A DNA stretch of 64,000 nt from Dermacentor variabilis (Eukaryota > Arthropoda > Arachnida > Ixodida > Ixodidae): assembly GCF_050947875.1 (NCBI RefSeq), contig NC_134571.1, positions 226,186,024 to 226,250,023 of the forward strand, in the 5' to 3' direction. Numbering within the stretch: the stretch's first letter is position 1; each line of letters begins with the position of its first letter. Below are positions 14,192 through 27,565 of the stretch, piece by piece. The position numbers and the translations under genes are program-made. Below the pieces are notes generated by a model that worked only from the letters and a program-made list of their open reading frames with translations, made no database searches and was not told the origin of the DNA.

Positions 14192-14226
<35 letters not shown>

Positions 14227-14230
14227 TTTT
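14183..14230 (-). repeat. (TAAA)n 3' tail of the LINE
   Basis: About eleven tandem ATTT units on the plus strand. They directly follow the 3' UTR on the minus strand, so this is the element's own tail and not an independent microsatellite. Confidence 0.85.
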
Positions 14231-14618
14231 CAATACTGCTGCTCTCCTTCGAGAGCGTGGCAGTTGGGCAGTACAATAATTCAGCTGTGCAATGCAAGGA
14301 AATCAAAGTATAGATTATAGAAAAAGTAAGAAAACGACAAAAGCAGTGCAAGTTATACATAGTACTATACAAGTACACTATGTTAAGATTAAACGGAATA
14401 GTAAATAATAAAAAGATGTAAAAGAGCAAGATGCTTTATAACAATAGCACAGATATTACTAAGGGCAAGTAATAAAACAGAAATAACTAAAATAAGCTAC
14501 GAGGGTTAGGGAAACATTATGGCAAGCGAATAAGCTATCGAAAATTAGAGTGTTTATTAAAATTTCCTAACGAATAAAGCAATCTGTGCCGGTGTCCCTG
14601 CATGCATAATAGGTACTG

Positions 14619-16565
14619 TTATTCACACACAGTTTTTTCTATTTGTGAGATAAATTCGGATAATGATTCAATGTTGGTGATAATAGGATCAAGTTGGTTC
14701 CATTCTGCTATCGCGAGCGGGAAAAAAGAATACTTAAATGTGTCATTTTTGCATGTGTATTCTGTCAATGTGTGCACATGGTTGTTACGTGTAGGTCGAG
14801 CCTCGGAGAATGAAATGTATCGGGAGGTATCTATTCTGTAGTTATATTTTAGTAGTTGAAACAAGAATTTTAAGCGAGCGTGTTTCGCTCTTGTGGATAG
14901 CGTTCGCAAACCGGACTGGGTTAAAAGATGTGTTGGCGAGTCTGTACGTCTATATTTGTTATGGATGAACCTCACAGCTTTCCTTTGTATTGATTCCAGC
15001 TTACTTATGTTAGTCTGTGTATGCGGAAACCAGACTGTGTTAGCGCATTCGAGAACAGGCCTTACAAATGATGTGTAGGCTAGCAACTTTGTTGACTTGG
15101 TTGCGAGCGCCAGGCTTCTCTTTAAGAAAAATAGTTTACGCAGCGCCTTTGAGATTGTATTACTGATATGTTTGTCCCATTTGAGCTCCGAGGTTAATGT
15201 AACGCCTAAATATTTGTGGTCTTCAACTTTGTTAAGTGGAGTGCAGTTAATTGTGTAAACAAAAATTGATGATACCGTTTTCCTGGTTACAGACATGATC
15301 GCGGACTTTTGTATGTTTATTTGCATCTGCCATTTGGAGCACCAACCAGCTATGTCAGCTAGAGAAACATTTAATTTAATGTGATCATTGTAATTGTTAA
15401 TTTCTCTGTATATGACGCAGTCGTCTGCGAATAGTTTTATATTGCAATTGATGTTAGCTGTGATATCGTTAATATAGAGTAAGAAAAGCAATGCTCCAAG
15501 CACAGACCGTTGGGGGACTCCGGATGTTACTGCGACTGTGTTAGAAAGCGTTTTTTCGTAAACCACAAATTGCGAGCGGTTACTTAAGAAACCTTTTATC
15601 CAAGCAGAAAGTTCTCCTATACCAAAAACCTTTTCAACTTTATCTATTAATTTGCTGTGACATACGCAGTCGAAAGCCTTGGACAAATCGAGTAGAATCA
15701 AGTCAGTTTGACCGCGGTTATTAACTGTAACAGCAAGATCGTGGACTAGTTCCGTTAGTTGGGTTACTGTCGATAGACCACTGCGAATACCGTGTTGCTT
15801 GGGTGAGAAAAAATTAATGCGCTCTAGGAATACGGTCATGTGCTTCAAGATTATGTGTTCTAGAAGTTTACATGACGTGCTAGTTAATGAAAGGGGTCTG
15901 AAATTTGAAGGTAATATTGTGTCACCTCCCTTGTGGATCGGGATTACCTTTGCAATTTTCCAATCATGAGGTAGATGTGAAGTTTTAAGTGATTTCCGGA
16001 AGACTAGGCCAAGATATTTACTGCACCACTCTGCATATCTTTTGAGGAAAGTATTAGGTACGTCGTCGGGGCCACTACCTTTCTTGGGGTCAAGTTTAAG
16101 CAGTAGATTGAAAATACCGGCAACCGTAATGTCTAGTTTAATGATTTTCGCGTGATGTTGCGTTGCAAATGGGGGAATAATGTTATCATCTATTGTAAAC
16201 ACTGACTGAAAAAAATGGTTATATGCATTAGCCTTAGCAGTTTTTTCTTCGGGAAGAGAATGTGATGTAGCATTTTTATTAGTACTAAAGTAATTCCAGA
16301 ACCTCTGAGGGTTATTAACAAGAAAATTAGGTAGTGTTACATCAAAGTAGTGCTGTTTAGCACGTTTAGCTTTAAGCTTGAATTCCGCGATGGCATCCGG
16401 TAATTTCTGAATTCTGGATTCTCCATCACCTTTTGTTTTTATTGCCCAACGTAACCTTTTCAAAGGTCGCTTTGCTTGAATAACTTCTCGTGTGATCCAT
16501 GGATTATTTTTTTGGAGGACGCTTTGTTTTCGTAGGTACGTAGTTAGTGATGCAGTAAAGTACAA
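14619..16565 (-). CDS. CR1/L2-like LINE ORF2, reverse transcriptase part
   Basis: This is a 648-codon uninterrupted frame. NNPWITREVI is the linker after the endonuclease. The RT follows with PDDVPNTFLKRY, NFRPLSLTSTSCKLLE, motif A LILLDLSKAFDCV, GVPQRSVLGALLFLLYIND and catalytic FADD at residues 379-382, then HKYLGVTLTSELKW and ECANTVWFPH of the thumb, and a long C-terminal region. Motif B has PQRSVLGA in place of the usual PQGSVLGP, two substitutions that may weaken it. The first Met is not the real start: the frame joins the endonuclease frame through a shift at a run of A residues at 16504-16515. It performs target-primed reverse transcription. Confidence 0.85.
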   Translation of the reverse strand: MYFTASLTTYLRKQSVLQKNNPWITREVIQAKRPLKRLRWAIKTKGDGESRIQKLPDAIAEFKLKAKRAKQHYFDVTLPNFLVNNPQRFWNYFSTNKNATSHSLPEEKTAKANAYNHFFQSVFTIDDNIIPPFATQHHAKIIKLDITVAGIFNLLLKLDPKKGSGPDDVPNTFLKRYAEWCSKYLGLVFRKSLKTSHLPHDWKIAKVIPIHKGGDTILPSNFRPLSLTSTSCKLLEHIILKHMTVFLERINFFSPKQHGIRSGLSTVTQLTELVHDLAVTVNNRGQTDLILLDLSKAFDCVCHSKLIDKVEKVFGIGELSAWIKGFLSNRSQFVVYEKTLSNTVAVTSGVPQRSVLGALLFLLYINDITANINCNIKLFADDCVIYREINNYNDHIKLNVSLADIAGWCSKWQMQINIQKSAIMSVTRKTVSSIFVYTINCTPLNKVEDHKYLGVTLTSELKWDKHISNTISKALRKLFFLKRSLALATKSTKLLAYTSFVRPVLECANTVWFPHTQTNISKLESIQRKAVRFIHNKYRRTDSPTHLLTQSGLRTLSTRAKHARLKFLFQLLKYNYRIDTSRYISFSEARPTRNNHVHTLTEYTCKNDTFKYSFFPLAIAEWNQLDPIITNIESLSEFISQIEKTVCE

Positions 16566-17375
16566 CCGATTTGAAGTGAAACCAAAGGGAATTTACATCT
16601 ACTGAAGCATCGGAGCCAATTTCTGAAAAATGCTGGAATTCATGAGCGAGGTGCATTAGTATGCTGTTATCGTGAGCGTTTTCGAAGTCTGTTACTACAG
16701 ATACAGAAGAATGAGTGGCTATGCTGCCACCAAGAGGCACGATGCACACTGGTACGTTGTTGTCTGATATACCATGAATTACATCAGTTTTTATGCGATT
16801 TATGTCGAAGTGGTTACTAAAAAAGATTAGATCTAGTATGTTCCGAGTATTTCCCTGAGAGCGGGTGGGGCATGAAACGATCTGATGAAGATTGAAGGTT
16901 AGCATGAGGTCAAACAATGCATCCGAAGCTGATGATGAGTAGCACATACTATTGCAGTTAATGTCTGGCAGATTAAAGTCACCCAAGAGGACAACGCGGG
17001 AACCAAACAAGTGGCGTTCTATGTAATCATGAATGACACTGATAGAGGCATCATCAGAGTTTGGGCTCCCATAAGCACAACCTATGAATATGCTTGTGCC
17101 GTCACAAAGTAGTTTACAAAAAATGGCCTCTGCGCCTTGTACCTCTGGGAGGGCTATAATGGAAAGGCCCTTTTTTATCAATAACGCCACTCCTCCACCA
17201 CGTGTGGGGCGGTCCTTCCGGGCCACAGAATAGTTGGGCGGTGCGAACTCGTGATCAAAAATATCAGTGTGAGCCGTGTTTCTGTTATGGCTGCTATGTC
17301 AGGTTCATGATCAATTATCAGATTTTCAAGTGATTCAGTCTTGTTGATGACGCTTCTTGCGTTCACCGTGAGGAG
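16504..17375 (-). pseudogene. CR1/L2-like LINE ORF2, APE endonuclease part
   Basis: The N-terminus (17375-17178) reads LLTVNARSVINKTESLENL and DIAAITETRL (catalytic Glu). Near 17260 the frame shifts to IFDHEFAPPNYSVARKDRP and RGGGVALLIKKGLS. It then has VVLLGDFNLPDINC (metal site), NILDLIFFSN and GISDNNVPV; the last motif is normally SDH, so the catalytic His appears to be Asn. The frame runs to the poly-A stretch where RT takes over in another frame. No ATG precedes the domain: the ORF2 frame is open across the ORF1 stop codon, which would suit reinitiation. Confidence 0.8.
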
Positions 17376-17377
17376 TG

Positions 17378-18145
17378 TTAGTTCGCTAATTTTGCAGTGC
17401 GACGAGTAGTAGCTCCCTTTTTTGTTTGGTCGCTGGACGCAGTCACCGCCTTTGCTGTACCTGCAGTAGCTACTTCTACGCGTTTTTCATTAAGTGGTAC
17501 CTTGTCCTTTTTCTTATCGCTCCAAACATATCCTCGTTTATTTATATATAACTTATCAAACACAAGGGAAACTTTCTCATTTCTTTGTCGGTTTGTTTTC
17601 GCACTGTTCCAAAGTTTCCTTCGAATATCGCGTACGCGTTTCGAAAAGTCTTCTCCAATGAATAGGCCTGTATCTTTAAGTTTGTATCCCCGTTTTATTA
17701 TTGAAGATTTGTCTCTTGAGTCAAGTAGCTTAAGAATTACAGGCCTAACCTTGTTCGGCGCTCCTCTACCAATTCGGTGTATACGTTCGATTGCTACTGG
17801 TTTTAATTCTAGAGTATCTACAATTATGTTTTTGTTCACCGCACTTTCAAGTACCAAGGGTGTCTCTCCCTCTTCCTCCGGTAAGCCATATATTAACAGG
17901 TTATTTCGCCTGCTACGATTCTCTAGATCGTCGATTTTTTCTTGCATGTCTTTGATAAGAATATTCATGTTTGATATTTGTTCTTGACAAGAGTCGACCT
18001 TTTCTTCTAGTTTTGTTAGTAGGTCTAATTTCTTGTCCATTTTAGCCAGGCGACTTTCCTTAATCTCTTTTATATCCGCAGCTATTTCCTTTAATTGTTG
18101 GCTGATTTCAGGGCCTGGATTCGTCTCAATGTCTCCGCCAAGAGT
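17378..18145 (-). CDS. LINE ORF1: coiled coil and RRM-like RNA-binding protein
   Basis: The frame is open for 255 codons from just after a TGA at 18148-18146; the first ATG (18040) would remove the first 35. After the 2A-like motif there is a heptad-rich coiled coil (KLDLLTKLEEKVDSC..., IKDMQEKIDDLENRSR). RRNNLLIYGLPEEEGE, ERIHRIGR and IGEDFSKRVRDIRRKLW follow; these are blocks of the L1-type ORF1 RRM/C-terminal domain (Transposase_22-like). The C-terminus is basic. Such proteins trimerise and coat LINE RNA. The true start is probably an in-frame ATG at 18184, but TGA codons at 18169-18167 and 18148-18146 now block it. Confidence 0.75.
   Translation of the reverse strand, partial: TLGGDIETNPGPEISQQLKEIAADIKEIKESRLAKMDKKLDLLTKLEEKVDSCQEQISNMNILIKDMQEKIDDLENRSRRNNLLIYGLPEEEGETPLVLESAVNKNIIVDTLELKPVAIERIHRIGRGAPNKVRPVILKLLDSRDKSSIIKRGYKLKDTGLFIGEDFSKRVRDIRRKLWNSAKTNRQRNEKVSLVFDKLYINKRGYVWSDKKKDKVPLNEKRVEVATAGTAKAVTASSDQTKKGATTRRTAKLAN
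18110..18133 (-). other. 2A-like ribosome-skipping motif DIETNPGP in LINE ORF1
   Basis: In frame with ORF1 the minus strand encodes G-G-D-I-E-T-N-P-G-P, a full match to the D(V/I)ExNPG|P signature at which ribosomes skip a peptide bond. It lies 24 codons after an upstream in-frame ATG (18184), with a Cys-rich leader and two TGA codons between. 2A-like sequences at the ORF1 N-terminus are established for some CR1/L2/Crack/Rex1-type LINEs, so position and context fit. Activity here is inferred. Confidence 0.75.
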
Positions 18146-18260
18146 TCATGTACATTCATCGCATGCTCAATCACAACAGCACATAGCCGTGGGCACGGCA
18201 GCACAAGCAAAAAGGGGTCATTTCAGCGGATACACTTTCCATATCGCCTCCTCACCTGTA

Positions 18261-18622
18261 GGATGAAGATAAGCGGATTGTTAGCTGACCGCATTCTGTG
18301 AGTGCCGCCGTGGCTCGGCCTTGCTTGAGGTGGTCTTTTATAGCTGGGTTGAGTGGTGGCGCTGGGCACAGGTCGTGCGCACAGCCCATGCTCCCAGCGT
18401 CCGCGCAGGTGGATGACGAGTGATGCAGCACGGGGTCCCATGACTTCAGCGGCACGGAAACTCGTTGTAGGTTGATAGCGGCGGCATTCACGACGCATGT
18501 TGTTCCGGCTTGTCCTGGTGGCTCGAAACTCGGACCGGCATGCAGCAGCAGTCCGGGCACGAGCTGTCGGATGAAGATAAGCGGATTGTTAGCTGACCAC
18601 ATTCTGTGAGTGCCGCCGTGCC
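18261..18622 (-). repeat. LINE 5' UTR with 308-bp monomer and a partial second copy
   Basis: GATGAAGATAAGCGGATTGT and about 30 following bases (to GTGCCGCCGTG) occur at 18262-18312 and again at 18570-18620, 308 bp apart. On the minus strand the element thus begins with a partial monomer followed by one full one. 5' UTR monomers of this kind carry promoters in other LINEs. Confidence 0.65.
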
Positions 18623-18632
18623 CAAATTAATT

Positions 18633-18860
18633 ATATCGTCGGATCTACGTGCCAAAACAACGATCTGATTACAAGGCACGCTGTAGTAGGGGACACGGGA
18701 ATAATTTTGACCACAGGTTTGTTTAACGTGCACCTAAATTTAACTGCACAGGTGTTCTTGCACTTCGCCCCCATCGAAACTTGCCGCCAGGACCGGGATT
18801 TGATCGCGCAACCTCTTGCTTAACAGCGCCACACGAAAGCTACTAAGCAACCACGGCGGG
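18633..18860 (-). mobile_element. Ruka-like tRNA-derived SINE, near full length
   Basis: On the minus strand: CCGCCGTGGTTGCTTAGTAGC (A-box region), GTTGCGCGATCAAATCCCGG (B box), CAAGTTTCGATGGGGGCGAAGTG, then TTTAGGTGCACGTTAAAC and the TGCCTTGTAATCAGATCG body. It abuts the 5' end of the LINE within about 15 bp. Confidence 0.8.
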
Positions 18861-19140
18861 TTTACTGAAGTGTTCACGAAGTTTCTTGCAAGTAATGTTC
18901 TGAGGTTCAATGTTTTTCTTATCCAATCTATTTAACAATGGCTGTTGCCGGTTCTTTAACATTTGTAAACCATATGTTGTTCTACATCTGTCAACTTCTA
19001 GTCTCTGAAATCTTTGCTATATGGGGTGAGTGTATCTTTTTAGTTTTACAAACTTGCGTTAGAAACAAATATTATTGTTTATCTATTGTTTATGTCTTTT
19101 GCACAGCCGATAACAATAAATCTTTGTAACAGGTAATACA

Positions 19141-27322: not shown

Positions 27323-27375
27323 GGGTTCTACTAGGAAGCATAAATACCCAAGAAACTTGATGGGGAAACGGCATC

Positions 27376-27565
27376 GCGGTAGCTCAAGTGGTAGAGCATT
27401 GCACGCGAAATGCGATGGTTGTGGGATCGTTTCCCACCTGCGGCAAGTTGTTCTTTCATCCACGCTCATTTCCATCAATTTATTGTTTCTTTATTTCATT
27501 TATTAAGCACAATTTCCACCATGTTGCCCTTAGTGTCAGTGTTTGTTGGCTTCTGATTATATGAC
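27376..27565 (+). mobile_element. tRNA-derived SINE, head-to-head copy 2
   Basis: GCGGTAGCTCAAGTGGTAGAGCA is a good A box and GTGGGATCGTTTCCCACC a B-box-like end; CTGCGGCAAG and the same tail as copy 1 follow. The two tRNA heads face each other across about 50 bp. Confidence 0.8.

What the first reader, a model, noticed from the sequence alone, without database searches (positions are those of the whole stretch)
18110..18184. 2A-like ribosome-skipping motif at the head of a LINE ORF1
In frame with the coiled-coil/RRM ORF1 of the 14.2-18.6 kb LINE the minus strand encodes DIETNPGP, a perfect 2A signature, 24 codons after an in-frame ATG. 2A-like motifs are established in some CR1/L2/Crack-type LINEs of other animals. 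The short Cys-rich leader would be released from the RNA-binding protein or act as a signal. In this copy two TGA codons separate the ATG from the motif, so the active family member must be elsewhere in the genome.
Basis: partly seen in the sequence, partly recalled or inferred. Interest (0 to 1): 0.75.

Follow-up and report, generated by a model that had tools for sequence, protein, structure and literature searches.

The report
2A peptide ending a repeated LINE leader
The motif looks like a real, conserved ribosome-skipping (2A) signal of a tick LINE retrotransposon, and in intact copies it ends a leader read in frame with repeated promoter-like units, so it probably cuts a variable leader off the element's ORF1 protein.

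Summary
DIETNPGP is real (18133-18110, minus strand), the only such octamer in the window; 8.8e-5 expected. In relatives the leader starts at the equivalent of ATG 18294, is 64 residues long including the octamer, shows omega 0.11 like ORF1, and ends LLLLGG-D(V/I)ExNPGP. Of 50 loci, 49 could be read at the motif and 45 keep the core.

Upstream lie tandem units of about 300 nt, each with an ATG; in 12 of 16 multi-unit loci the insertion begins within 4 nt of the GGG before that ATG, and a TATA-like box lies 32-34 nt upstream in 21 loci. Units are in frame with ORF1: 48 of 51 spacings are multiples of 3. Gene models with the same layout come from five hard-tick genera. Best explanation: promoter units are translated and StopGo removes the copy-dependent extension, so ORF1p always starts at one proline. 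2A in LINEs is known; this setting looks like a new variant. Skipping, transcription start and leader translation are untested.

The parts
14203..18623 (-). The whole LINE copy (broken), from the GGG at its 5' end to the (AAAT)n tail
   Evidence: blastn to relatives of the same family, 95-96% over about 4.4 kb in L009-L014; tail seen; 5' end
18313..18623 (-). Upstream unit (monomer): R (18623-18564, ATG 18602-18600) plus body; out of frame with the last unit here because of a 7-nt deletion at 18313/18312
18335..18342 (-). TATAAAAG box near the end of the body
   Evidence: read; same box 34 nt before the next unit's GGG in relatives
18256..18312 (-). Last R unit (short of its first bases): ATG 18294-18292, MRSANNPLIFILQ, ending in CAG
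18250..18258 (-). CAG|GTGAGG junction, 5' splice-site-like
18134..18255 (-). Leader after R; TGA at 18225-18223 and 7-nt deletion at about 18143/18142 in this copy
18110..18133 (-). 2A/StopGo core octamer DIETNPGP; expected break between Gly 18115-18113 and Pro 18112-18110
17378..18112 (-). ORF1 downstream of the break (Pro 18112 to stop 17380-17378)
17417..17423 (-). A AAA AAG heptamer in the ORF1 frame inside the ORF1/ORF2 overlap (possible -1 frameshift site)
   Evidence: read; in relatives
14619..17486 (-). ORF2 (endonuclease and reverse transcriptase), broken into three frames here
   Evidence: domains in the homologous ORF2 of L010

Best explanation
The motif is a StopGo/2A signal of a tick CR1-like LINE family. 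In intact copies RNA probably starts at the GGG 21 nt before the ATG of a 5' unit, set by the TATA-like box at the end of the unit before it. Translation starts at that ATG and runs without a stop through any further units, the last R and a conserved leader. At LLLLGGD(V/I)ExNPG|P the ribosome lets this N-terminal piece go and carries on, so ORF1p begins at the same proline however many units the copy carries. The units can thus be promoter and coding sequence at once, because 2A discards what they encode. Shown: motif, conservation, frame, spacing, insertion start points, protein-level constraint. Inferred: RNA start, translation of the leader, skipping, and the purpose. The window copy cannot do this: it is broken.
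For: 45 of 49 readable motifs in 50 loci keep D(V/I)ExNPGP with x = T, S, A, M, R, E. Of 93 homologs, 47 have a near-match to the motif (loose pattern required) and 44 of these 47 keep it, x taking nine residues. Synonymous changes in the motif between families. Leader omega 0.11 (0.01-0.30), ORF1 0.11 (0.04-0.19). Hexamer before the core resembles the Leu-rich class of viral StopGo sequences (PMC12846837 section 10). Frame: 39 of 43 loci open from last R to motif, 25 of 43 with two or more units in one open frame, 48 of 51 spacings multiples of 3 with ten different lengths. Monomer body omega 0.44 (0.24-0.74). 12 of 16 multi-unit loci begin within 4 nt of GGG; TATA-like box at -32 to -34 in 21 loci. 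27 of 61 proteins with a resolved last R have further in-frame R units, from five tick genera.
Against: No RNA, ribosome or translation data. dS is near saturation for leader and ORF1 (1.5 and 1.4). For two close monomer pairs (few changes) the true frame does not have the lowest omega (A2/A body 0.78 against 0.21 in frame 1; L023/L024 body 0.66 against 0.57), and the body's interval overlaps that of shifted frame 1. Spacings within a family are not independent (27 of 51 are 300). L020, not among the 51, has one spacing of 290 beside six of 291. Four of 49 motifs are broken and four of 43 leaders closed. The gene models are chosen for open frames. The nine loci were picked partly for long open frames.
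Confidence: 0.6

Rival explanations
1. Dual targeting: a product started in a monomer begins with a signal-peptide-like stretch, and skipping is partial, so part of ORF1p (or the released leader) enters the secretory path and the rest stays in the cytosol, as described for sea-urchin NLR 2A leaders.
For: Monomer starts are hydrophobic (maximum 15-residue Kyte-Doolittle mean 1.87-2.67 in eight families) while last-unit starts are not (0.53-0.87 in four families). Precedent PMC4981915 (abstract, section 2 and passages seen). Body omega below 1.
Against: No signal-peptide predictor was run; no role of a secreted ORF1p is known to me; the body is less constrained than the leader.
Confidence: 0.15
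2. The units are an ordinary untranslated promoter array, ORF1 starts at the last R or further in, and the open frames upstream are incidental.
For: Each single monomer has a 1-5% chance of being open by shuffling, and unit length is inherited within a family; mouse L1 has noncoding promoter monomers (PMC6454616, abstract seen).
Against: 48 of 51 spacings are multiples of 3 over ten lengths; body omega 0.44; in-frame units in five tick genera.
Confidence: 0.17
3. The octapeptide is conserved for another reason (a fold or junction in ORF1p) and does not cause skipping.
For: No activity test was possible.
Against: What varies (x, V/I) and what does not is what the published 2A core allows, and the upstream Leu-rich stretch fits as well.
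Confidence: 0.07
4. Chance motif in a decayed repeat.
For: The window copy is broken.
Against: 8.8e-5 expected; kept in 45 of 49 readable motifs.
Confidence: 0.01

Closest known systems
[quoted passage not shown] 2013; not held; seen only as a reference and recalled)
   Same: Endonuclease/RT LINE with D(V/I)ExNPGP
   Different: In-frame tandem promoter-like units ahead of the 2A; whether that paper has such a case could not be checked
L1Tc of Trypanosoma cruzi (Heras et al. 2006; not held; seen as a reference and recalled)
   Same: LINE with 2A near its 5' end; from recall, close to an internal promoter sequence
   Different: Other clade and host, no tandem units recalled
Mouse L1Md promoter monomers (PMC6454616, abstract seen)
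   Same: Variable number of tandem 5' promoter units
   Different: There untranslated (recalled); here open and in frame with ORF1; no kinship claimed
Sea-urchin NLR 2A signal sequences (PMC4981915, section 2 and passages seen)
   Same: N-terminal leader ending in 2A that may act as a signal sequence
   Different: Cellular immune genes, no tandem units described in what I read
Viral StopGo sequences with Leu-rich upstream motif (PMC12846837, section 10 and passages seen)
   Same: Core octamer and (L)n-x-G hexamer
   Different: Viral polyproteins; retrotransposons appear there only in the reference list passages that I found

Membership tests
StopGo/2A peptides | core (D/G/C/N)(V/I)ExNPGP | tested here: met
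   45 of 49 readable motifs
StopGo/2A peptides | suitable upstream context | tested here: met
   Leu-rich hexamer ending in G before D, by eye against PMC12846837 section 10; lost in the window copy by the 7-nt deletion
StopGo/2A peptides | skipping activity | not testable with these tools
   needs translation assay
APE-type non-LTR retrotransposon | apurinic-type endonuclease and reverse transcriptase in ORF2 | tested here: met
   PF03372, PF14529 and PF00078 above cut-off in the ORF2 of L010
CR1 clade | position in an RT tree | not tested
   no tree built; named relatives further down the ORF2 list are bird proteins, which I take as CR1 from recall
Promoter-monomer LINEs (as mouse L1Md) | variable number of tandem 5' units, each with a promoter | tested here: inconclusive
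   1-5 units and at least eight in L020, TATA-like box and insertion starts fit; promoter activity not measured

The most novel reading that the evidence does not exclude
The R at the head of every unit is at once start codon, signal-peptide-like head, 3' splice site (pyrimidine-rich ...CAG|) and, in its last copy only, 5' splice site (CAG|GTRAG). Splicing of the last-R donor of one copy to the R-end acceptor of a downstream copy would rebuild exactly 'R|body' in phase, giving an RNA with a fresh promoter unit. Promoter units would be renewed by splicing, kept translatable by frame, and their protein removed by 2A.
Probability: 0.1. Interest if true: 0.85.

Novelty: new variant of a known kind. 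Interest (0 to 1): 0.6.

Why it matters
The purpose of 2A in LINEs is, to my knowledge, open. Promoter units that are also coding give one: 2A makes ORF1p independent of how many units a copy carries. Hard ticks hold several such families with natural variation in unit number, so the idea can be tested directly. The element would also be a natural single-start design: discarded leader, 2A, ORF1, probable -1 frameshift, ORF2. Such frames already appear in public databases as 'uncharacterized' tick genes.

Tried and rejected
Rejected: the ATG 18184 leader. Rejected: R spliced to ORF2 to give it an AUG; none of the 120 listed ORF2 homologs (of 299 found) matched an R-like N-terminus pattern, and an A AAA AAC or A AAA AAG heptamer lies in the overlap in 23 of 31 loci. 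Spliced retrocopies as proof of splicing: of 53 exact R ends of family B, 21 go on with GTGAGA and 29 with CTGTCC; the other 3 were not examined. A blastn search for diverged monomers stopped on an empty result and was redone with tblastn. Structure prediction and fold search were not used. Ten answered searches of the open-licence library showed no title or abstract on 2A with coding promoter units or on 2A in a tick LINE; one search was a rejected query. Two key papers are not held, so absence from print is not established.

Full report
WHAT WAS CHECKED. The minus strand at 18133-18110 reads DIETNPGP, in frame with a 255-codon frame. It is the only D(V/I)ExNPGP in six frames of the window; 8.8e-5 expected. 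The window lies in a genome of 2.48 Gb. The organism is very probably the tick Dermacentor variabilis: contig C6 has exactly the length given for the contig of a D. variabilis protein, P0268, and two pieces of another D. variabilis model, P0220, match at 100%. Against this, the contig length listed for P0220 (154748651) differs slightly from that of C9 (154739526), so it may be another assembly of the species.

THE LEADER WAS MISREAD. Aligned to the intact copy L010, the window copy lacks 7 nt in the Leu run before the motif, lacks 7 nt at the junction between its two units, and has a TGA at 18225-18223. The first loss is private among the copies compared: 18 of 18 other full-cover matches span 218 nt against 211. 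The second shows as a spacing of 308 (window) against 315 in eight of ten other family-A loci measured, the other two having 291 and 318. The TGA codon is a stop in L019 too. In intact copies the leader reads MRSANNPLIFILQ-VRRRYGKCIRSNDPFLLVLPCPRLCAVVIEHAMHVHELLLLGGDIETNPGP, 64 residues.

CONSERVATION. One search scored 149 ORF1 matches (of 15,197 candidates, a lower bound); DNA was read for 49 besides the window. The motif could be read in 49 of 50 loci (not L018); 45 keep D(V/I)ExNPGP; L020, L021, L024 and L027 do not. Of 93 homologs, 47 show a near-match under a loose pattern, and 44 of these are intact; the other 46 were not classified. Family codons of the motif differ synonymously. In an alignment of 12 tick proteins (35-53% identical to the first) the Gln-Val after R, LPxP, and G-D-x-E-x-NPGP columns are invariant. 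Omega of the leader (window family against L037, 43 codons) is 0.11 (0.01-0.30), of ORF1 (against L023, 192 codons) 0.11 (0.04-0.19), dS near saturation in both.

TANDEM CODING UNITS. Upstream of the last unit lie tandem units: R (GHGGT..MR..NPFxFxxQ) plus a body. In 43 of 50 loci the last R could be placed; 39 are open from R to the motif; 25 hold two or more units in one open frame; 48 of 51 spacings are multiples of 3, in ten lengths from 285 to 321; the exceptions are the window (308), L035 (305) and L037 (295). L020 could not be placed there; its eight R units have six spacings of 291 and one of 290. Of 13 monomers tested, 11 have no stop in frame 0 and two have one; the shuffled chance per monomer is 1-5%. 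Body omega between families A and K is 0.44 (0.24-0.74), against 0.68 (0.36-1.26) and 1.26 (0.69-2.3) in shifted frames. Of the six pairs the four A-against-K pairs, which are not independent, have the lowest value in frame 0; the two close pairs do not. Of 175 homologous proteins scanned, 103 have the motif, 61 a resolved last R, and 27 of these further in-frame R units; the 25 to which the script attached a species come from Ixodes, Haemaphysalis, Amblyomma, Rhipicephalus and Dermacentor. Most are gene models and so biased to open frames; genomic spacings are not chosen that way, except as told.

PROMOTER EVIDENCE. One search found 16 loci with two or more units. In 12 the likeness of the first unit to the last stops 0-4 nt upstream of GGGCAC; L012, L013 and L050 run on into a body, and in L053 the fetched DNA ends. 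A TATA-like box begins 32-34 nt before the last unit's GGG in 21 loci; the simple pattern did not find one in L019, L023, L033, L037, L039 or L043. This is what a TATA-set start at GGG would give, with 21 nt before the ATG. There are no RNA data.

MECHANISM. Shown: motif, leader and units share one frame and are constrained as protein. Inferred: RNA starts at a unit, translation starts at its ATG and passes through the remaining units; StopGo releases the extension; ORF1p starts at Pro. Without 2A, ORF1p would carry an extension that differs between copies. Whether the extension has a task of its own is open; monomer starts are hydrophobic like signal peptides.

THE CAG|GTRAG JUNCTION. Body and leader differ from just after the Gln of R. 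In the 40 last units found by CAGGT, base +3 is a purine and +5 is G in all 40 (not required by the search), and +4/+5 is AG in 39. In 61 proteins chosen for Gln-Val, the next residue is S 25, R 25, G 7, C 3, K 1, a set united by the codon rather than by chemistry. This looks like a constraint on nucleotides, as in a 5' splice site. The R end also serves as 3' splice site in the D. variabilis model P0220: a host exon ending CCACG|GTGAGA at C9:4538270 is joined to ...CTTGTCTTCTTTATGCAG|ACTATC of a unit 3.9 kb downstream. P0225 and P0268 appear joined at the same point, by sequence comparison only. Whether the models rest on RNA reads was not checked. What the element gains is unknown.

ORF2. 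In L009, L010 and L013 the ORF2 frame is 955 codons, in the -1 frame of ORF1, with no Met before codon 180. An A AAA AAC or A AAA AAG heptamer lies in the ORF1 frame in the overlap in 23 of 31 loci; two have AAAAAAA and six none. A -1 frameshift is likely, untested.

WHAT IS KNOWN. 2A in non-LTR elements is established (PMC4981915 section 2; Odon 2013 and Heras 2006 not held). Promoter monomers are known in mouse L1 (PMC6454616 abstract). Recent CR1, I and L2 activity is reported for Ixodes (PMC4748124, passages). Nothing joining 2A and coding units appeared in ten answered searches (listed under Tried and rejected). Verdict: a known kind of motif in an unusual, testable setting.

Noticed in passing
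window 17423-17417; relatives L009-L048: A AAA AAC/G slippery heptamer in the ORF1 frame inside the ORF1/ORF2 overlap, ORF2 in the -1 frame and without an early AUG; 23 of 31 loci.
   Followed up: partly
L058, L059 (C9:4538097-4542443): A D. variabilis gene model (P0220) splices a host exon onto the end of an R unit of a related LINE 3.9 kb downstream.
   Followed up: partly
P0121-P0213: 13 of the 120 listed ORF2 homologs, none with a species name in the listing, carry their own 2A-like motif in the first 120 residues, ahead of the endonuclease, so 2A is widespread in related LINEs.
   Followed up: no
window 18627-18861; also L015, L018, L021: A dispersed repeat of about 230 nt (77-78% between copies) flanks the LINE's 5' end and lies inside or beside other LINE copies; it looks like a tRNA-derived SINE by eye.
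   Followed up: no
window 27373-27445 (+): Rfam tRNA match, 41.7 bits; gene or tRNA-derived repeat not decided.
   Followed up: no
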